Both the position numbers and the translations under genes were made by a program. The notes beneath the pieces are model-generated. The model ran no database searches, was not told the origin of the DNA, and saw nothing but the letters and a program-made list of their open reading frames with translations. A stretch of DNA of 9,547 bases from JALTID01 sp027004335 [NCBI: bacterium] (GTDB lineage: Bacteria > JALSQH01), in the NCBI GenBank assembly GCA_027004335.1, contig JALTID010000145.1, positions 1 through 9,547 on the forward strand, given 5' to 3'. Shown here piece by piece: positions 1-8,088 of this stretch (positions are counted from its first letter, which is position 1; each line of letters starts with the position of its first letter).

Positions 1-1433
1 GGGATATATATGAGTCTGAAATTGATTCAAAAAATCTAAACTCTGTAAGTCTCTATTTCAAAGAAATGGGAGAGATACCCCTCATATCTCATGAAAAAGA
101 AATTGAGCTTTCTAAAAAAATTAAATCAGGCGAAAAGGAAATTATTGAAATCCTGACCACCAACAAATTTTTTATGAACAGACTAAGAGAAGAAAAAGAA
201 AAACTTGAAAGGAATAGAATAAAATTGAGGAATCTGATTGAGATTGAAGAAAGTGAAGAACCAAAAATAACAGAAGATTACATTGAGGAGATAATAAATA
301 AAATTGACCGTCTGATAAGGAGAAGAGGGGAGATTAACAAGCTAAAAAATAAGTTAAAAAACGAGATAGCTGAAGGAAAGAAAGAAGTTATTCTGAAAAA
401 AATTGAAAATAAAGTGAAAAATCTTAGAAGGATCCTTGATAACATTAAATTTAACAGAGACTTCCTTGACAAAGTGATTTCAGAAATAAGATATTACGAT
501 GCAGAGGTTAAAAAGGCACATCAAGAAATTGAATTCTACAAAACAAAACTGGCAAGTAATCAGATCCCAGATGATGAGAAAACCATCTGGAAACAAAAAA
601 TTAAAAACAGTGGAAATGCGATAAGGGAAACACTTGAAAAATTAGATACCACTGAAGAGGAATTCAATGAATTTCTCCATAAGCTTAAAGAAGCTGATGC
701 TAAAATAAAAGAGGCACGAAATGAGTTAATGCAGGCAAATCTCAGACTTGTTATCTCTATCGCAAAAAAATATGTAGGCAGAGGTTTAACTCTTAATGAT
801 CTAATTCAAGAAGGAAATTTAGGACTTATTAAGGCTGTGGAAAGATTTGATTTCAGCAAGGGGTTTAAATTCTCAACTTACGCTACATGGTGGATCAGAC
901 AATCCATAACTAGGGCTATTGCAAACAAGGCAAGAACAATCAGAATCCCGGTGCACATGCTGGATATTATAAACAACATTCTCAATGTTTCCAGGGAATT
1001 AAGCAGTGAACTGGGAAGAGAACCCACAGAAGAAGAAATTGCAGAAAGAACAGGGCTCTCTGTGGAAAGAATAAAAGAGATAAAGAAACTTGTTAAAGAG
1101 CCTATCTCCCTGGATGAGCCAATAAGTGAAGGAGAAGAAAATACTGTTGCATATTTTGTGCCTGATACAAAAACTCCTACTCCCCTTGAAGTAACTGTGA
1201 GCAAGCAGATCTCGGAGAAAACCCTTCATTTACTCTCCCTCCTCAGTGAAAGGGAGGCAAAAATCCTTGAAATGAGGTTTGGATTGAGAGGAGAAAAGGA
1301 ACACACACTGGAAGAGATCGGTCAGTATTTTAATCTGAGTAGAGAAAGAATAAGGCAAATTGAAGCAGAAGCCATAAGAAAACTCAGATCCCCTGAACTG
1401 GGTAAAGATCTTAAGGATCTTATAGAAGACTGA
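1..1433 (+). CDS. rpoD: Primary RNA polymerase sigma factor, sigma-70 family (5' truncated by window edge)
   Basis: This is the promoter-recognition subunit of RNA polymerase. The reading frame is open from base 3 with no stop, and 21 codons precede the first ATG at 66. Those codons complete conserved region 1.2 ([15 protein letters not shown]), so the ATG at 66 is internal and the true start lies upstream of the window. Counting from that Met, residues about 40-215 are a Lys/Glu-rich, probably coiled non-conserved region. Region 2 spans about 218-298 and includes the -10 recognition helix with [11 protein letters not shown] and the [14 protein letters not shown] end. Region 3 is about 299-375 (ISLDEPIS finger, 347-354). 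Region 4 is about 385-445, with the -35 helix-turn-helix [19 protein letters not shown]. The strict match in regions 2.4 and 4.2 points to a housekeeping sigma, not an alternative one. sufC follows after 14 bases with no terminator. Confidence 0.96.
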
Positions 1434-1447
1434 AAAGAAGAGGGATT

Positions 1448-2161
1448 ATGCTACAAATTGAGAAACTAACCGCTGCAATAGCGGAGACGGGGGAGATTAA
1501 GCTCAAAAACATCAATCTAACAATCGGACCAGGTGAACTACATGTTCTCATGGGTCCCAATGGGAGTGGAAAGAGCACCCTCGCCAATACAATAATGGGC
1601 TCATCACAATACAAAATTGTAGAGGGTAGTATAAATTTAAATGGTGAAGAAATAAATAATCTTCCCACTGAAGAAAGAGCAAAAAAAAGCCTTTTTCTCT
1701 CTTTCCAATCGCCCCCAGAAATCCCGATGGTGAATTACACTAAATTCTTACAGGCCATCCTGGAAGCCAATGGAATGGAAGTGGATCTCAACAGGATCAA
1801 GGGCGTCCTCAGAAAAGTAGGGCTTTCTGGAGAATTTATTTCAAGAGAGGTAAACAAAGGCTTCTCAGGGGGAGAAAGGAAAAGAGCAGAAATGGCACAA
1901 ATGCTCCTCTTAAAACCCTCCTTTGCAATACTTGACGAGCCTGATTCTGGAGTAGATGTGGACTCATTAAAATATATTGCAGGCACAATAAATGAGATAT
2001 TAAACAGAAATGCCGGCGTACTTCTGATCACTCATGCAGCAAAAATATTGGGACATCTACCTTCAAACTTTAAGGTACATATCCTTGTAGATGGTGAAAT
2101 AAGAGCAAGTGGAGGCCCTGAACTTGTAGAAAAAATTGAATCTGAAGGGTTCGGGAGCTAA
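1448..2161 (+). CDS. sufC: Fe-S cluster assembly ATPase SufC
   Basis: SufC is a cytoplasmic ABC-type ATPase without membrane segments. In the known system it binds SufB and SufD and drives the conformational change needed for Fe-S cluster assembly. The 237 residues are close to the usual length of about 250. Visible motifs are Walker A GPNGSGKST (36-44), Q-loop Q87, ABC signature FSGGERKR (139-146), Walker B with catalytic Glu in FAILDEPDSGVD (159-170, E164) and H-loop H196 in ITHAAK. The FSGGERKR signature, the DEPDSGVD run and the late HILVDGEI segment are typical of SufC rather than of transporter ATPases. The ATG is preceded by GAAGAGGG. sufB starts 2 bases after the stop, so co-translation is likely. 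Confidence 0.96.
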   Translation: MLQIEKLTAAIAETGEIKLKNINLTIGPGELHVLMGPNGSGKSTLANTIMGSSQYKIVEGSINLNGEEINNLPTEERAKKSLFLSFQSPPEIPMVNYTKFLQAILEANGMEVDLNRIKGVLRKVGLSGEFISREVNKGFSGGERKRAEMAQMLLLKPSFAILDEPDSGVDVDSLKYIAGTINEILNRNAGVLLITHAAKILGHLPSNFKVHILVDGEIRASGGPELVEKIESEGFGS

Positions 2162-2163
2162 AA

Positions 2164-3468
2164 GTGTGGAACTTCGCAAGGAAAATCGGTGAAAAAAACG
2201 GGGAGCCAGAATGGCTCATCCAGTTAAGAGAAGAAGCAGAAAGCTATATTGATAGGGCACCATTTCCAGAAGAAATCAAATCGGTGGACCTGGAGTACTA
2301 TAATCCTATGGGAAGAGGGGATATTGATCTCCCTGATATCAAGGATCCGAGAAATATTCCTCCAGAAATAAGAGATATGCTAACCAAGATGGGCATCCCG
2401 GAGAGGGAATGGCCCACTGTACTGGGTATGATCCAGGTGGACACATCTTCAAGTATATCCTCTTTGAAAAGTTATTTTGAAAAATTGGGGGTAATACTCC
2501 TTCCCTTCAGGGATGCACTAAAGGAGGTGGAAGAAGCAAGGGAATACGCTTTTAAGCTGATGCCATACAAGGAGAATAAAATTGTAGCATACCACACTGC
2601 ATACTGGAATGGCGGCGTTTATCTTAAAATAGGTAAAAATGTTAAGGTTCCACAACCCCTTCATACATACTTTTTGATAACAGAATCAAAGCTTGCTCAG
2701 GCTGATCATGCACTTTTTATTCTTGAAGAGGGGAGCGAAGCAACTCTGATCGAAGGATGTACGGCCCCTATACTTACAAGATTTTCTGCTCATCTTGGAG
2801 CAACCGAAGTTTATGTTAAAAAAAATGCAAAGGCAAAAGTTGTGGTTCTGCAGAACTGGCCAGGATATGTTAACACGAGACCTTATACCCGTGTTGTTGT
2901 AGAGGATGGCGGGGAAATAGAAGTGGTGGTGGCAATTCTGGGCACAGGCAAAACCTCAGGTAGATACGAAGAGATATTTTTAAAAGGAAAAGGATCAAAG
3001 GCAAAGATAAACAGTATCTCTTTTGTAAGAGATCAAGGATATCTTGACGATGTAATTAAAGTGTATTTGGAAGCTCCAGAGACCACAGGCTATATAAATA
3101 CAAAAGGTGTGGTAAAAGACAATGGTATAAGCAACTCTTACACCCTTATTGAGGCCAGGAAAGAAGCGGAAAATTCACTTGGTCATATTGAATGCACAGG
3201 GTTACTTCTGAACAGAGGTGCGATCCATTCCACTTTTCCTTTCATTTATTCTAACACAAGATCAGCTCAGTTAGAACATGAAGCATTTGTTGGCAAAATA
3301 GGAGATGATGTCATTGAGTATATGAGAAGTAGAGGACTTACAGAAGAAAAGGCTGTCTCACTTGTTCTCAGAGGCTACATTGACCCCGTTGCTGAAATGA
3401 TCCCATTTGAATTTTCAGCAGAAATCAGGAGAATGGCCAATATTCTAGCAGAGAGAGGCGGTGCATGA
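2164..3468 (+). CDS. sufB: Fe-S cluster scaffold subunit SufB
   Basis: SufB is the scaffold on which new Fe-S clusters form, in complex with SufC and SufD. The start is GTG at 2164, with GGGAG at 2153-2157 inside the end of sufC and the usual SufB opening GEPEW at residues 13-17. The 434 residues are shorter than E. coli SufB (495). Only two cysteines are present: C199 in the family motif EGCTAP, and C344, which aligns with the essential E. coli Cys405. E373 in QLEHEA aligns with E. coli Glu434; both proteins have exactly 61 residues after this Glu, and the Cys-Glu spacing of 29 is the same. The SufBD beta-helix core and the C-terminal helix segment YMRSRGLTEEKAVSLVLRG are clear. The stop overlaps the sufD start as ATGA. 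Confidence 0.95.
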   Translation: MWNFARKIGEKNGEPEWLIQLREEAESYIDRAPFPEEIKSVDLEYYNPMGRGDIDLPDIKDPRNIPPEIRDMLTKMGIPEREWPTVLGMIQVDTSSSISSLKSYFEKLGVILLPFRDALKEVEEAREYAFKLMPYKENKIVAYHTAYWNGGVYLKIGKNVKVPQPLHTYFLITESKLAQADHALFILEEGSEATLIEGCTAPILTRFSAHLGATEVYVKKNAKAKVVVLQNWPGYVNTRPYTRVVVEDGGEIEVVVAILGTGKTSGRYEEIFLKGKGSKAKINSISFVRDQGYLDDVIKVYLEAPETTGYINTKGVVKDNGISNSYTLIEARKEAENSLGHIECTGLLLNRGAIHSTFPFIYSNTRSAQLEHEAFVGKIGDDVIEYMRSRGLTEEKAVSLVLRGYIDPVAEMIPFEFSAEIRRMANILAERGGA

Positions 3469-4559
3469 AAATAGAAGAAGTCATAAAGCCGCTTAATATT
3501 GAAGAAAAAGAACGGAAAATTAGAAAGATTCCTCAAAATATAAAAGAAATACTTGAGGTCATGGGAATCCCCGAGGATGAATGGTTTTTTCTTACCGGGT
3601 TAGGGGAAAAAATTCCTGGGAGATATCAGCGTTTGAAAAATTATTTTATACACAAAGGAATAGAGTTCAAAGAACTACCCCGTGAAAAATCTTCCTCACT
3701 TCATGTGATTTTCCCTGAAGGGAAAAGAATAATGGAAGAAGCACTTTTTCTTTCCTGCCTCTCAAGATGCGCTATCCAGCCACACAAAAATTTAGAGATT
3801 TCATTTGCAAGGGGAAGCCAGGGAACAGTTGTTATAGGAAGCCCTATTCCCAAGCTCTTCTCTACAAATCTTGTTAAAAATAGCATTAGAATCAATGTAG
3901 AAGAGGGAAGCAGCGCAGATATCGCTCTTCTCTTTAGTTATGATACAGAAACTTCCTCACGAACAGAAGTGGAAATAAATATGGATGCCGGAGCTTCCCT
4001 TATCATTTCAGGAGTGATATTCAATCCAGGGAAAGACACAGGAATCCACTGGTCAATAAATATGAAAGAAAAAAGTACAGTTCAATTTGATGAAATAGGG
4101 TTTCTCCTTTCCCCGGAGAATTACAGGGGAAGCTGGACAGATCTTTTTGTAAGAGGGAAAAAAGTCTCAGCAAGTTTAAACAGCGCGGATTTTGCACTGG
4201 GAGAGGGGGAAAGCAGGGTAGTTTATCTGGCAAAGATATTCAAGGGTAATTCAGGAGCTGAGGTTATAATCAATTCATACAGTATGGATTTCTCCCGTGG
4301 CGCAAAGAAGGGCTTTCTACCAGGATTTTACACAGAGGAAGATGATGTGATACTTCAACACTCAGCAGGAAGCACCCAATTTACACCGCAGAAAATAGAA
4401 TATATGAAAAGCCGCGGTTTAACAAACAAAGATATTTCAAAAATATTTATTGACTCGGTCCTTGAAAAAACCGTTTACAGAAAACTTCCTGCCGAGTTTA
4501 CTGAAGAAATGAGCAACTATACTCGTTATCTTCTGAATCGTATGGAAATTATTGTTTAG
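3465..4559 (+). CDS. sufD: SufBD-family protein, SufD subunit of the Fe-S scaffold
   Basis: This second SufBD-family protein (364 residues) is expected to pair with SufB in a SufBC2D complex. H299 in ILQHSAG aligns with E. coli SufD His360, which acts with SufB Cys405 at the cluster-forming interface. The C-terminal YMKSRGLT segment is the shared SufBD helix. The SufB cysteine motif EGCTAP appears as IGSPIP, with no Cys, and there is no Cys at the SufB C344 position, so the roles are split as in known SufB/SufD pairs. The N-terminus (residues 21-66) resembles that of the neighbouring SufB: IPQNIKEILEVMGIPEDEW against IPPEIRDMLTKMGIPEREW. The ATG overlaps the sufB stop and has GAGAGG upstream. 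The stop lies 2 bases from the convergent phosphatase gene. Confidence 0.9.
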   Translation: MKIEEVIKPLNIEEKERKIRKIPQNIKEILEVMGIPEDEWFFLTGLGEKIPGRYQRLKNYFIHKGIEFKELPREKSSSLHVIFPEGKRIMEEALFLSCLSRCAIQPHKNLEISFARGSQGTVVIGSPIPKLFSTNLVKNSIRINVEEGSSADIALLFSYDTETSSRTEVEINMDAGASLIISGVIFNPGKDTGIHWSINMKEKSTVQFDEIGFLLSPENYRGSWTDLFVRGKKVSASLNSADFALGEGESRVVYLAKIFKGNSGAEVIINSYSMDFSRGAKKGFLPGFYTEEDDVILQHSAGSTQFTPQKIEYMKSRGLTNKDISKIFIDSVLEKTVYRKLPAEFTEEMSNYTRYLLNRMEIIV

Positions 4560-4561
4560 GT

Positions 4562-5206
4562 TCAGACTGTCTGAGACTCTTCCTGAATTCCACCAAGGTG
4601 GTGAGTGTAATTAAGAAAAATAAGAGTATATCCTCTTTCTGGAGAATGTTTTGCAAGAGAATAGGAGGCTGTATCAAATTGAACTCTCCAGAAGTAGGGA
4701 GGGGTTAAATTTAATATTCCAGCAAAAATAACCTTTAATAGAGCTGTATGAGATACCACTGCAATAGTCTTGCCCTGATTTTCTCTTACTATTCTATTTA
4801 AAGCTCGCATTGCTCTTCTTCTCAGTTGAGAAATTGGTTCAAAACCAGGCATCCTGAGTTTTTCAGGAGTTTCAAGCCACATCTTGAATTCTTCAGGATA
4901 GAGTTTTTCGATTTCCGCTATTGTTCTTCCCTCCCAATCCCCCAGAGCTATGCTTTTGAAGGCAGGTTCAACCACGATTTTAGCCCCCGTTGTTTCAGCA
5001 ACAGCAGAGGCAGTATCATACGCTCTTACAAGGGGGCTGCTGTAAATTACCTCTATTCCACTATTTCTCAGAGCCTTTCCCAGATTCTTTACCTGCTTCC
5101 TTCCATTTTCACTGAGGGGGAAATCCTCCCAGCCGCGAAATCTTCTTTCTTTATTTCCTTCAGACTCACCATGCCTTATCAGGTAAATTAGAGTCTTTTC
5201 CATCAT
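4562..5206 (-). CDS. Histidine phosphatase superfamily (phosphoglycerate mutase-like) protein
   Basis: This is a cytoplasmic phosphatase or mutase fold protein of 214 residues, near the usual 200-220. The phospho-accepting His is H12 in LIRHGES; R61 in YSSPLVRAYDTA and H153 in VVSHTALLK complete the phosphate pocket. The LGDWEG motif (88-93) and the final LNYTHHL are typical of the cofactor-independent phosphatase branch that includes CobC, PhoE-like and phosphoserine phosphatases. The usual proton-donating Glu a few residues before GDWEG is Ser (S85, codon AGC) here. The substrate cannot be told: no cobalamin or serine genes are nearby. Two ATGs are adjacent (5206 and 5203). GGAG at 5211-5214 sits 4 bases from the first and 7 from the second, so the second may be the real start. 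The gene lies just after a terminator, with no obvious promoter of its own. Confidence 0.9.
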   Translation of the reverse strand: MMEKTLIYLIRHGESEGNKERRFRGWEDFPLSENGRKQVKNLGKALRNSGIEVIYSSPLVRAYDTASAVAETTGAKIVVEPAFKSIALGDWEGRTIAEIEKLYPEEFKMWLETPEKLRMPGFEPISQLRRRAMRALNRIVRENQGKTIAVVSHTALLKVIFAGILNLTPPYFWRVQFDTASYSLAKHSPERGYTLIFLNYTHHLGGIQEESQTV

Positions 5207-5216
5207 TATACTCCAT

Positions 5217-5251
5217 TTAAAAAAAGAGGGGGGAAGTTAACTTCCCCCCTC
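5217..5251 (-). terminator. Rho-independent terminator of the Trp-rich small protein gene
   Basis: Bases 5226-5251 form a perfect 26-bp palindrome (half-site GAGGGGGGAAGTT), giving an 11-bp G/C-rich stem with a TTAA loop. On the - strand it is followed directly by seven T (A run at 5219-5225 on the + strand). The + strand side has no T run, so it works for leftward transcription only. It lies 31 bases past the stop of the small protein gene and 10 bases before the phosphatase start. Confidence 0.92.
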
Positions 5252-5281
5252 ATACTATGGTAGGGAGAGGGACGGACTTAG

Positions 5282-5545
5282 CTATTCCAGATCTTTTAAT
5301 CTTTCCTCAATACGCTCAAGTTCCTTCTTCAACCTTTCAGCCTGAGCTCTGAGATATGCCTTCTCCTCCTCCTTAGTAGGATAGTAATCATAGTAATCAT
5401 TCCATGCATCAGGATAATCATAATAATCCGCCCACCATGGGCCATGGCCCCATCCCCAGCCATGGTGCCAGCCACCATGCCATCCTCCCCATCCCCACCA
5501 TCTACCTCTTCCCCACCACGGACCATATCCATCACCCCATGGCAT
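5282..5545 (-). CDS. Small Trp/Gly/His-rich protein with C-terminal coiled coil, DUF5320-like
   Basis: The protein has 87 residues and no known function. Residues 1-36 are almost entirely Trp, Gly, His, Pro and Arg, with WW pairs and GWG/GGWHGGW-type repeats. Residues 37-56 are Tyr/Asp-rich (DYYDYP, DYYDYYP). About 57-87 form a charged amphipathic helix, probably a coiled coil (KKELERIEERLKDLE). About 13 of the first 50 residues are Trp. There is no Cys, signal peptide or membrane helix. The start MPWGDGYGP followed by a Gly-rich part and a Glu/Lys coil resembles the DUF5320 pattern (MPxGDGxGP), whose members often lie near Fe-S or metal-cofactor genes in anaerobes; this is recall, not a search. 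ATG at 5545 is preferred over an in-frame TTG at 5551, because AGGAGG (5553-5558) is 7 bases from ATG but 1 base from TTG. The gene has its own promoter and terminator. It might bind metal through His, but that is a guess. Confidence 0.85.
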   Translation of the reverse strand: MPWGDGYGPWWGRGRWWGWGGWHGGWHHGWGWGHGPWWADYYDYPDAWNDYYDYYPTKEEEKAYLRAQAERLKKELERIEERLKDLE

Positions 5546-5552
5546 ATTCAAA

Positions 5553-5558
5553 CCTCCT
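5553..5558 (-). promoter_or_regulatory. Strong ribosome binding site AGGAGG that decides the small-protein start
   Basis: A perfect Shine-Dalgarno AGGAGG lies 7 bases before ATG 5545-5543. The upstream in-frame TTG (5551-5549) would have only 1 base of spacing, so it is not the start. Confidence 0.88.
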
Positions 5559-5569
5559 TCTCTTTTTAA

Positions 5570-5597
5570 ATTTTAATCCCCTTTAAAGTTTTGTCAA
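5570..5597 (-). promoter_or_regulatory. Sigma-70 promoter of the Trp-rich small protein gene
   Basis: Reading leftward, TTGACA (5592-5597, perfect -35) is followed after 16 bases by TAAAAT (5570-5575, one mismatch from TATAAT). Initiation would fall near 5563, just upstream of AGGAGG at 5553-5558, giving a short leader of about 18 bases. It sits in the 69-base gap after the phosphodiesterase stop. This is the best promoter in the window and fits the sigma factor encoded here. Confidence 0.85.
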
Positions 5598-5614
5598 CCT
5601 AACTTCTTCACGGA

Positions 5615-6409
5615 TCATTTTTCCTCTGATTTACAAAGTTCCTCCCTTATATTTACTGCAATATATGGATAATCAGTAATTATCCCGTCAACTCCTTGAA
5701 GGAGCAACCTCTTGATCATTTCTCCTGAATTTACAGTCCAGACAATAACTTTTAAGTTAGCAATTTTCGCTTTTTCAATTTTTTCCTCTTTAGTCGCAGA
5801 ATAATGGGGATGTAGAGAAAAAATCCCTGTGGCAATTCCTCTCTTTAATGCTTCCTCCCACCTGTTGTTTTCAAAAAGATAACCTCCTTTTACCACATCA
5901 TTCAGCGATATGAGATAATCTACAGCATCCCAGTTGAAACTTGACACAATGACTCTCTCAAGAGACTCGTTCAGAGTAAGAAGAGAAAGAATATATTTTA
6001 TCCATATCTTCTCCCTATCTGAAAGTCCGCTATTGTGTGAGAATTTTAATTCAAGATTAAAATAGATCTCGCTGAAATGCTGGAGGATCTCCTCAAGGGG
6101 AGGGGGGCTTCTCCATTTTCCCATAATCGTTTTTTGCCTCCCTGGTAGAGGGGTAAAATTCCTCTCTGAAAGGATTTCCCTTGCAAGTGCTTGATCCGTT
6201 TTAACTTTTTTCCCCGTCAGAGATACCTCATTATCGTGTAGGAGGAGTGTTTTATTATCCTTAGAAAGCCAGACATCTATCTCAACCCCTCTGATCCCGA
6301 GGTTTCTTATCTTTTCAATGGCCCCAATCGTGTTATCCCTGGCTTCCCCAAGAAGTCTACATCTTCCCCTATGAGAGAAAATTAGAATCCTGTAATATCG
6401 GCAGCTCAT
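5615..6409 (-). CDS. Glycerophosphodiester phosphodiesterase (GDPD family)
   Basis: The predicted enzyme splits glycerophosphodiesters (deacylated phospholipids) into glycerol 3-phosphate and an alcohol. Its 264 residues form a single TIM-barrel GDPD domain. Visible active-site elements are FSHRG (H13, R14), VEIDV (metal ligands E43, D45), LLHDN (H58, D59), NLELK (E120, K122), VIVWTVN (221-227) and GVDGIITDYP (239-248). The common ENT motif after HRG is DNT (25-27). No signal peptide or membrane helix is evident, so it is probably cytoplasmic. The ATG overlaps the stop of the upstream diguanylate cyclase gene as ATGA and has a poor Shine-Dalgarno, which suggests translational coupling. No terminator is seen after it, so its transcript may continue into the Trp-rich gene. 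The general family call is firm; the exact substrate is not known. Confidence 0.92.
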   Translation of the reverse strand: MSCRYYRILIFSHRGRCRLLGEARDNTIGAIEKIRNLGIRGVEIDVWLSKDNKTLLLHDNEVSLTGKKVKTDQALAREILSERNFTPLPGRQKTIMGKWRSPPPLEEILQHFSEIYFNLELKFSHNSGLSDREKIWIKYILSLLTLNESLERVIVSSFNWDAVDYLISLNDVVKGGYLFENNRWEEALKRGIATGIFSLHPHYSATKEEKIEKAKIANLKVIVWTVNSGEMIKRLLLQGVDGIITDYPYIAVNIREELCKSEEK

Positions 6410-8088
6410 CTTTGATCTTTAATCTGCCCAGCTATATCCTGATAATGTACTACTCTATTTTTACCTTCTCTCTTTGCCTCATAAAGAGCCTTATCTGCCT
6501 CTTCAATTATTTCTTCTCTACTGTGAGGTCCTACAACAAAAGGTTTCTTAGTAGATGCTCCGACACTGATAGTAACATGAACCTCTATCTCTTTTTCGCC
6601 TCTTTTTATTTTAAAGGGATAATGACTTACCATCATCCTTATCTTTCCTCCAATATAAATTGATCCTTCTTTATCTGTGTTAGGTAAAATCAGGCCAAAC
6701 TCCTCTCCTCCATATCTTGTGGCGATATCAGTACTTCTCAACTGCTTAGAAATTAAACCACCCAACTGTGAGAGCAGCGCATCACCAGACTGATGTCCAT
6801 AGGTATCATTAAAGATTTTGAAATCATCAATATCAAGCATCAGATAAGAAAGAGGATACCCCACTCTTCTGGCCATTCTCAACTCTTTCTCCAGTGTTTC
6901 CTGAAGATATCTATGGTTGTAAAGACCAGTTAAGCTGTCAGTGATAGAAAGTATCTGTAATTTGCTGTTTACTGCCTCTAATTCTTTGTTTCTCTCTGAA
7001 AGAGTTTTATTCATAATTTCAAGTCTTCTGTAAGCATCCCTGAGTTCATTATGTGCTGTCTCTAATTCAAGTTTGTCATCTCTCAATCTCTCAAGCATAT
7101 GGTTAAAAACTTTTATAAGCTCACCAATTTCATCTTTTGTCCTGACGGGGATGGTTATATTCAATTCCCCTTCACTTACCTTTTTTGCTGCCCATAAGAG
7201 ATTATCAATGGGTCTTAAAATGCCTCTCAACATAAATGAAATAATTACCACAGACACAAGAAAGAGAAGAGAAACAACTACTGCAAGACGGACAATTCCA
7301 TAATAATAGTTCTTTCCAATATCTTCTTTTAGCATCACCAGTTGAATATAATTATCAAGAATATCATCAAAGTAGAAACCATTGAAGTACTTTTCATTCT
7401 CAAAGTAACTTTTACCTGAAGAGAAATTTCTTGAATCACATCCCTCACCTATGCCGGCATGAAATAGAACTTCCCCATCTTTATTACAAACTATTAAGCC
7501 CCACGAGATCCCCTGAAAAAGGTCCTGAAGCTTTTCATAAATTCTCCTATAAAGTGGAGAAAAATTCAAAATTCCGACAAAATAACCTGTAATTAACCCT
7601 TTTGAATTTTTTAAGCATTCCACAACCACTTTGAGACTCGTCCCCGGAACATTCTTAACAGCATCTTTCACAGACTCATATTCGCAACTGAAGGGATAAA
7701 AAGTAGTGAAAGGGAGGTATCTTGCAGTAACCAAAATCTTCCCTCTGAGATCACTCACAAAGAAATTGGAGAATTCAGGATTAACAGAAAGCAATATTTT
7801 AAAATCAGAAACAAGCTCATATTTTTTCTGATCTGTTGGATTTTCAATAAATTCTGTCATTGGTCTTCTTGAAGAGAATCTGTCCATCTCCCTTATAACA
7901 TAAATAACCCAGTTCTCCACCTCTGTCTTGATGTTAATGAAAGACATTTTTACAGTATTCTGGGCATCTCGCATAGCCACAGTTTTACCCATTGTCACAT
8001 TCACATAAGAAATAATGAGGACAGAGATAAGAATAATGACTCCCAGCAGAATCACTATCTTGGCTCTAACAGAAGATAATCCACCCAC
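6406..8088 (-). CDS. Membrane-bound diguanylate cyclase: sensor domain, HAMP, GGDEF
   Basis: The enzyme makes cyclic di-GMP from two GTP. Of 560 residues, about 10-30 form the first membrane helix. About 31-264 form an extracytoplasmic sensor with four Cys (C135, C158, C201, C217), probably Cache-like by layout. About 265-288 are the second membrane helix, 289-342 a HAMP domain (LRPIDNLLWAAKKVSEGEL) and 340-380 a coiled coil. About 383-550 are the GGDEF domain. Active residues are present: DIDDFKIFND (419-428) and GGEEF (460-464). The inhibitory I-site RxxD is intact as RSTD (451-454), five residues before GGEEF. No EAL or HD-GYP domain follows. The start is GTG 8088 with a weak GAGTTAGG upstream; the next in-frame GTG, at codon 12, would cut into the first membrane helix. 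The ligand cannot be told. The gene overlaps the phosphodiesterase gene by 4 bases. Confidence 0.94.
   Translation of the reverse strand: MGGLSSVRAKIVILLGVIILISVLIISYVNVTMGKTVAMRDAQNTVKMSFINIKTEVENWVIYVIREMDRFSSRRPMTEFIENPTDQKKYELVSDFKILLSVNPEFSNFFVSDLRGKILVTARYLPFTTFYPFSCEYESVKDAVKNVPGTSLKVVVECLKNSKGLITGYFVGILNFSPLYRRIYEKLQDLFQGISWGLIVCNKDGEVLFHAGIGEGCDSRNFSSGKSYFENEKYFNGFYFDDILDNYIQLVMLKEDIGKNYYYGIVRLAVVVSLLFLVSVVIISFMLRGILRPIDNLLWAAKKVSEGELNITIPVRTKDEIGELIKVFNHMLERLRDDKLELETAHNELRDAYRRLEIMNKTLSERNKELEAVNSKLQILSITDSLTGLYNHRYLQETLEKELRMARRVGYPLSYLMLDIDDFKIFNDTYGHQSGDALLSQLGGLISKQLRSTDIATRYGGEEFGLILPNTDKEGSIYIGGKIRMMVSHYPFKIKRGEKEIEVHVTISVGASTKKPFVVGPHSREEIIEEADKALYEAKREGKNRVVHYQDIAGQIKDQR

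What the first reader, a model, noticed from the sequence alone, without database searches (positions are those of the whole stretch)
5282..5597. Self-contained transcription unit for a Trp-rich small protein
An 87-residue protein with about 13 Trp in its first 50 residues, Gly/His repeats, a Tyr/Asp block and a C-terminal coiled coil sits alone between a near-consensus promoter, a perfect AGGAGG and a perfect 26-bp palindromic terminator. This suggests high, independent expression. It resembles DUF5320, whose function is unknown, but here the Gly-rich part has no Cys and is unusually rich in Trp and His. Trp is costly to make, so such a protein is probably under selection for a specific role. 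Metal binding, RNA binding or self-assembly are possible; none is shown.
Basis: partly seen in the sequence, partly recalled or inferred. Interest (0 to 1): 0.65.

Follow-up and report, generated by a model that had tools for sequence, protein, structure and literature searches.

The report
Tryptophan-rich variant of a DUF5320 protein
A short, strongly signposted bacterial gene makes an 87-residue member of a little-studied protein family (DUF5320) that usually sits beside iron-sulfur-cluster handling genes; here the usual cysteine part is gone and a conserved tryptophan/histidine-rich stretch is present instead, which makes it an unusual, testable variant, though no function has been shown.

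Summary
ORF 5545-5282(-) encodes 87 aa, 13 Trp in the first 50, behind TTGACA-16-TAAAAT and AGGAGG and before a perfect 26-bp palindromic terminator. By Pfam's criterion it is a DUF5320 protein (45.4 bits, cut-off 27), but a divergent one. An 84%-identical ortholog in G001, the only other held genome of its family, keeps the order rpoD-sufCBD-phosphatase-DUF5320, the Trp/His repeats, a 12/12 promoter, the terminator and an identical 20-nt 3'UTR element; dN/dS is 0.06. So the gene is real and selected. Its Trp share (15-16% in the pair) stands out among 75 sampled sequences (median 1.6%, next 6.3%), and the usual Cys-bearing segment is missing. Sampled DUF5320 genes mostly lie by NifX-like (45 of 51) and MinD/ParA-type ATPase (40 of 51) genes, and one is fused to a ferredoxin; the Trp-rich pair lie by suf genes instead. 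Best reading (inferred, 0.4): an oligomeric low-complexity accessory of Fe-S cluster handling. 'Self-contained' is too strong: a phosphatase gene follows 19 nt after the terminator. New variant of a known kind.

The parts
5282..5545 (-). DUF5320 protein, 87 aa: Trp/Gly/His-rich 1-38, Tyr/Asp block 39-56, helix/coiled coil 57-87
   Evidence: PF17253 45.4 bits; ortholog 84%; helix 58-86
5592..5597 (-). -35 box TTGACA
   Evidence: TTGACA also in the ortholog
5570..5575 (-). -10 box TAAAAT, 16-nt spacer
   Evidence: ortholog TATAAT, 16-nt spacer
5553..5558 (-). Shine-Dalgarno AGGAGG
   Evidence: AAGGAGGT identical in the ortholog
5258..5277 (-). C/U-rich 3'UTR element, 20 of 20 bases identical in the ortholog; its 16-nt core occurs without mismatch exactly once in each of the two genomes
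5226..5251 (-). intrinsic terminator, perfect 26-bp palindrome, followed by T7 (5225-5219)
   Evidence: the ortholog keeps it with a G-C to C-G change at the stem tip
4562..5206 (-). histidine phosphatase (His_Phos_1), starting 19 nt after the palindrome; perhaps served by read-through
   Evidence: same order in G001
1448..4559 (+). sufC-sufB-sufD, convergent with the phosphatase/DUF5320 pair
   Evidence: order kept in G001
5615..6409 (-). GDPD-family phosphodiesterase, codirectional, ends 17 nt upstream of the -35 box; no match to it in G001's contig

Best explanation
A genuine, selected, probably abundant cytoplasmic small protein: a divergent DUF5320 member. The C-terminal coiled coil makes oligomers (predicted helix only). 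The N-terminal aromatic/Gly-rich part is disordered and makes many weak contacts (inferred). In the family as sampled this module accompanies NifX-like and MinD/ParA-ATPase-ferredoxin proteins of the kinds that handle Fe-S or Fe-Mo-S clusters, so the likeliest job is an accessory scaffold that gathers cluster carriers or shields their clusters. In this lineage the Cys segment is missing, Trp/His stand where Arg/Phe repeats are usual, and the gene lies beside sufCBD, so it probably serves SUF-made clusters. Shown: gene reality, family score, anatomy, conservation, neighbourhood. Inferred: oligomerisation, multivalent binding, Fe-S role, SUF partner, abundance.
For: PF17253 over cut-off and full length; ortholog and synteny with suf in a second genus; dN/dS 0.061 for the gene, 0.088 in the low-complexity part; nearest NifX-like gene within 8 kb in 45 of 51 sampled DUF5320 loci (36 within 2 kb, 8 at 2-4, 1 at 4-6, none further), MinD/ParA-type ATPase in 40 of 51, Fur in 10, NifU_N in 6 (names from one representative each); one protein carries DUF5320 (37.2 bits, cut-off 27) and two Fer4 stretches (60.7 bits, cut-off 21.1); C-terminal helix 58-86, block means 95-98 pLDDT for residues 61-87, most of residues 1-36 below 50. 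A two-domain Mrp/NifX-like protein of Desulfovibrio binds Fe-S clusters and transfers them in vitro (PMC6345978; abstract, introduction and one results section read).
Against: The window protein and its ortholog lack the NifX/MinD neighbours. Genome G000 has such a cluster elsewhere (contig C69, L114) with no DUF5320 match beside it, and G001 has one NifX-like gene over the cut-off. The suf genes are convergent, not in the same unit; suf matches in 50 other loci were found only in G001's contig and, at about 6.5 kb, in L079. No Cys, so no cluster ligation by thiolates. The 51 loci lean to well-scoring classic members, some from the same genus. The N-terminal model is low-confidence. No experiment exists.
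Confidence: 0.4

Rival explanations
1. Nucleic-acid binding protein: the Gly/aromatic/Arg-rich part contacts RNA or G-rich DNA and the coiled coil makes it multivalent, as in RGG proteins.
For: Many classic members carry long RG/FG repeats. A paper on archaeal G-quadruplexes lists a Methanosarcina mazei DUF5320 protein as matching a G4-binding motif, called an RG-domain there (PMC7565180, one passage seen).
Against: The window protein has few RG steps (R13, R15) and an acidic Tyr/Asp block; neighbours of sampled members are metal-cofactor genes. The paper's match is computational.
Confidence: 0.2
2. Metal (Ni, Cu, Zn, Fe) buffer: four His in a Gly/Trp frame bind metal.
For: All four His are in invariant columns of the two orthologs; Fur-family genes lie by 10 of 51 sampled loci.
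Against: Only four His and no Cys; other members shown have 0-3 His, so His is not a family trait; no signal peptide is apparent by eye, unlike periplasmic ZraP-type proteins (recalled).
Confidence: 0.15
3. The mRNA matters as well as the protein: the 20-nt C/U-rich 3'UTR element and terminator form an attenuator or a 3'UTR-derived small RNA; Trp codons could sense Trp supply and set read-through into the phosphatase gene.
For: Element 20 of 20 identical while synonymous sites of this and neighbouring genes differ at 50-86%; its core is unique in both genomes; the phosphatase follows the terminator closely in both. The element is predicted to pair with Trp/Gly codons in both transcripts, better than most shuffles of the element itself (6 and 28 of 300 reach the observed energy), and can pair with the terminator's G-run in both.
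Against: Synonymous shuffles of the gene pair as well (67 and 131 of 300 reach it), and the paired codons differ in place between the orthologs; the antiterminator is no better than with shuffled elements (282 and 570 of 1000). No Rfam family over its gathering score. The downstream gene is not a trp gene. TrpB is present in both genomes, which is neutral.
Confidence: 0.15
4. Low-complexity drift: an ordinary DUF5320 whose repeats wandered to Trp and mean nothing special.
For: The middle part of the family varies greatly in composition between sequences.
Against: dN/dS 0.088 over 54 codons of the low-complexity part; 12 of 13 Trp and all 4 His lie in invariant columns. Only two orthologs are known.
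Confidence: 0.1

Closest known systems
DUF5320 (Pfam PF17253)
   Same: Full-length profile match over the cut-off; MPxGDGxGP start; Gly/aromatic middle; C-terminal coiled coil
   Different: Lacks the GPMTGRxxGYCxGYxxPGY segment and any Cys; 15% Trp against a median of 1.6%; Tyr/Asp block; no NifX/MinD neighbours
ORP complex / MrpORP of Desulfovibrio (Orp3, 4, 5, 8, 9)
   Same: Sampled DUF5320 neighbours are of the same kinds: NifX-like (Di-Nase) and MinD/Mrp-type ATPase-ferredoxin proteins, with sigma-54 activators in 21 of 51 loci
   Different: The introduction read names no DUF5320 protein in the complex; the window gene has a sigma-70-type promoter and suf neighbours
Trp leader peptide attenuators (trpL; recalled)
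   Same: Run of Trp codons upstream of a terminator
   Different: 87-codon conserved gene with a family match; competing hairpins not clearly above controls; no trp gene downstream
RGG-type RNA/G4-binding proteins (recalled, and one passage)
   Same: Gly-rich low complexity with aromatic residues
   Different: Trp/His in place of Arg/Phe; binding untested

Membership tests
DUF5320 (PF17253) | Score over Pfam's gathering cut-off (27 bits), the formal definition | tested here: met
   45.4 bits, profile 1-99; 38.5 bits in the genome search; ortholog 49.3
DUF5320 (PF17253) | MPxGDGTGP-type N-terminus (common, not part of the formal definition) | tested here: met
   MPWGDGYGP; ortholog MPWGDGTGP
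DUF5320 (PF17253) | Cys-bearing GPMTGRxxGYCxGY segment (usual, not part of the formal definition) | tested here: not met
   Absent in window and ortholog; 70 of 75 sampled sequences have a Cys. Hence filed as a divergent variant
DUF5320 (PF17253) | C-terminal coiled coil | tested here: met
   Predicted helix 58-86; heptad pattern. Oligomer state not tested
DUF5320 (PF17253) | NifX/MinD-type neighbours (usual, not defining) | tested here: not met
   None in the window or in G001:C237
Trp leader attenuator | Competing hairpins better than chance | tested here: inconclusive
   Pairing with Trp codons beats element shuffles (6 and 28 of 300) but not synonymous shuffles (67 and 131 of 300); antiterminator not better than shuffles
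Trp leader attenuator | Trp biosynthesis genes downstream | tested here: not met
   Downstream gene is a histidine phosphatase
Metal-binding His-rich protein | Binds metal | not testable with these tools
   Four invariant His only
RGG/G4-binding protein | Binds RNA or G-quadruplex | not testable with these tools
   Literature lead only

The most novel reading that the evidence does not exclude
A DUF5320 module has left the NifX/MinD cofactor system in this lineage and become an abundant stand-alone aromatic 'sticker' scaffold: Trp/His-Gly repeats plus a coiled coil drive a bacterial condensate around SUF-made Fe-S clusters, while the mRNA's invariant C/U-rich 3'UTR element and terminator tune read-through into the phosphatase or release a small RNA.
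Probability: 0.1. Interest if true: 0.7.

Novelty: new variant of a known kind. Interest (0 to 1): 0.4.

Why it matters
DUF5320 is widespread (over its cut-off in 116 of 386 sampled genomes), yet a full-text search found the name in two papers only. Its neighbourhood and a ferredoxin fusion give a concrete, testable Fe-S/Fe-Mo-S hypothesis for the family. The Trp/His variant without Cys is a natural experiment: the Cys segment can be lost while both ends are kept, so it helps to separate the roles of the parts.

Tried and rejected
3'UTR element pairing with the Trp codons: better than most element shuffles (6 and 28 of 300) but not better than synonymous shuffles (67 and 131 of 300), and at different codons in the two orthologs, so left open. 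Antiterminator with the terminator's G-run: not better than shuffles (282 and 570 of 1000). Rfam on 4500-6500: 15 matches up to E 5, none over its gathering score. Solved structures: 7 weak matches, best E 0.15, to molecules with no evident relation. NCBIfam for the protein: one chance match, 10.9 bits, cut-off 380. Related loci in genome contigs: 3; L015 (Pacearchaeota) is a DUF5320-like protein, the two Geobacillus loci match residues 57-86 only and look by eye like sensor kinases. Papers: DUF5320 2 (of one a single passage was read, the poplar HSF paper was seen in the listing only); PF17253 none; four N-terminal peptide strings none; three wider term searches showed nothing on the family in their listings, of which one search listed 15 of 24; led to PMC6345978. 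Neutral drift of the low-complexity part was judged unlikely on dN/dS. That suf proximity is general in the family was rejected. In one search a 'SufC' label also appears in L025 and L062; they gave no sufC match of 80 bits or more and may be other ABC ATPases. The organism could not be named.

Slips and limits: one search read minus-strand loci on the wrong strand and was redone; searches stopped on script errors; the column headed 'bits' printed E-values, so no score is taken from it, and its 75 rows (hits of a profile built from 29 seeds, the window included) hold some fragments, one of 44 residues. In one search at most 13 first-look candidates per genome were scored. Random control regions for the neighbourhood count were not taken; the fall-off with distance serves instead. 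The dN/dS of the C-terminal part is not usable (synonymous sites saturated).

Full report
What is there. The reverse strand at 5545-5282 encodes an 87-residue protein: MPWGDGYGP, a Trp/Gly/His-rich stretch to residue 38, a Tyr/Asp block (39-56) and a 31-residue heptad segment. Thirteen of the first 50 residues are Trp, against 0.9% Trp in the eight other long proteins of the window. Upstream lie TTGACA-16-TAAAAT (11 of 12, the best of 24 sites listed) and AGGAGG seven bases before ATG; downstream lies a perfect 26-bp palindrome followed by seven T. The number of promoter-like sites in the window is not above shuffles (24 against 20.1), so the promoter alone would prove little.

Independent support. 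Of 59 genomes searched with the protein, 11 had a match at E 0.01, the own genome included; one, G001, the only other held member of the same family, has an 84%-identical ortholog. In G001 the order rpoD, sufC, sufB, sufD, phosphatase, DUF5320 is the same. Its contig ends 483 nt upstream of the ortholog's start; the window's GDPD protein has no tblastn match there at E 1e-5, so that neighbour seems not to be kept. The ortholog has a 12-of-12 promoter with the same 16-base spacer, the same ribosome site and the same terminator, whose tip pair changed from G-C to C-G. dN/dS by Nei-Gojobori is 0.061 over 85 aligned codons and 0.088 over 54 codons of the low-complexity part; five neighbouring genes gave 0.03-0.10 where it could be computed. 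So the gene is real, selected, and equipped with strong signals in two genera.

Family. Pfam gives DUF5320 (PF17253) at 45.4 bits, cut-off 27, over the whole profile. An alignment with the ortholog and six other members shows the shared MPxGDGxGP start and the coil, and shows that the segment around GPMTGRxxGYCxGYxxPGY is missing in the pair. Among 75 distinct sequences collected from the loci (some are fragments), the median Trp share is 1.6%; the pair has 14.9% and 15.9%, the third-ranked 6.3%; 70 of 75 contain Cys, the pair does not. A profile of the pair searched in 386 genomes scores 178-182 bits on the pair and 31-34 bits on nine others at E 1e-6 (at most 13 candidates per genome were scored). 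As far as sampled, the Trp-rich form is restricted to this family.

Neighbourhood. DUF5320 is over its cut-off in 116 of 386 genomes. I took 51 loci: the window, G001, the nine other matching genomes, and 40 regions chosen from the better-scoring matches, one per genome but some of the same genus. Genes were called mechanically and clustered by BLAST. The nearest NifX-like gene (PF02579) lies within the region in 45 of 51 loci: 36 within 2 kb, 8 at 2-4 kb, 1 at 4-6 kb, none further. A MinD/ParA-type ATPase with ferredoxin motifs lies in 40 of 51, a sigma-54 activator in 21, an ARMT1-like protein in 11, Fur in 10 and NifU_N in 6 (names from one representative per cluster). The fall-off with distance is the only control; random regions were not taken. 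One protein in L022 holds DUF5320 and two Fer4 stretches, both families over their cut-offs. Some loci are cut by contig ends, and the sample leans to classic members.

The window is an exception. Neither the window nor G001:C237 has NifX or MinD genes nearby. The own genome (80% complete) has two NifX-like and two MinD-type genes and an FeS_assembly_P gene together on contig C69, and a further NifX-like gene on C15, with no DUF5320 match near them. G001 (97% complete) has one NifX-like gene over the cut-off. Each of the two genomes has a single DUF5320 over the cut-off. So the gene is apart from the usual partners and is kept beside sufCBD, in convergent orientation; among 50 other loci, suf matches were found in G001's contig and, about 6.5 kb away, in L079.

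Transcription unit. The phosphatase gene starts 19 nt after the palindrome in the window; in G001 the matching ATG lies 28 nt after the stem, though a mechanical ORF starts earlier. No other promoter-like site of 9 or more matches is listed on this strand between the DUF5320 promoter and the phosphatase start. The simplest reading is partial read-through; it is not shown. The upstream GDPD gene ends 17 nt before the -35 box and no terminator-like site is listed between. 'Self-contained' is therefore too strong. Between stop codon and terminator lies a C/U-rich element, 20 of 20 identical between the genera, whose 16-nt core occurs without mismatch once per genome. It is predicted to pair with Trp/Gly codons in both transcripts: this beats most shuffles of the element (6 and 28 of 300 reach it) but not synonymous shuffles of the gene (67 and 131 of 300), and the codons differ in place. 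An antiterminator with the G-run is no better than with shuffled elements (282 and 570 of 1000). The element stays unexplained.

Structure. Single-sequence AlphaFold gives a helix 58-86 (block means 95-98 for residues 61-87), two short low-confidence helices at 37-53 and mostly below 50 for residues 1-36; pTM 0.35. No solved relative was found by sequence.

Mechanism. I commit to an oligomeric low-complexity accessory of Fe-S (or Fe-Mo-S) cluster handling, at 0.4. The family link rests on neighbourhood and one fusion; a two-domain Mrp/NifX-like protein of Desulfovibrio binds Fe-S clusters and transfers them in vitro (PMC6345978: abstract, introduction and one results section read). The step from there to SUF in this lineage rests on conserved adjacency in two genomes only. 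RNA/G4 binding (a paper lists an archaeal DUF5320 as a motif match, one passage seen), metal buffering and an mRNA-level role remain open.

Verdict. Real, conserved, and an unusual variant of a known family of unknown function; the more useful product is a testable hypothesis for that family.

Noticed in passing
L065 7216-7800(+), L084 7562-7819(-), L086 9532-9834(+), L097 9344-9571(+), L022 6996-7469(-): The MPxGDGTGPxGxGP-type start occurs on different C-termini in these neighbourhoods: the DUF5320 coil, a zinc-ribbon-like end with CPxCG pairs (label by eye), and a two-cluster ferredoxin (L022, start MPFGDGKGP). It may be a shared recruitment tag.
   Followed up: partly
5258-5277(-): C/U-rich 3'UTR element identical 20 of 20 between two genera with diverged synonymous sites; role unknown.
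   Followed up: partly
5206-5226(-): Phosphatase gene starts 19 nt after a strong terminator, with a similar arrangement in G001; suggests conserved read-through.
   Followed up: partly
L114 3369-6563(-) (G000:C69): ORP-like cluster in the same genome: two NifX-like, two MinD-type ATPases, FeS_assembly_P and a ferredoxin-like gene, with a transporter-like gene upstream (ferredoxin and transporter named by eye), without DUF5320.
   Followed up: partly
2164-4559(+): SufB and SufD score below NCBIfam's curated cut-offs (SufB 290 of 346.4; SufD 45.1 of 222) and SmsB is the top model for SufB (302.6 of 650), so this SUF system is divergent; SufC is over its cut-off.
   Followed up: no
66-1433(+): The RpoD-like sigma factor, cut by the window's edge, has a long charged stretch between region 1.2 (residues 1-25 of the ORF from 66) and region 2 (from residue 221).
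   Followed up: no
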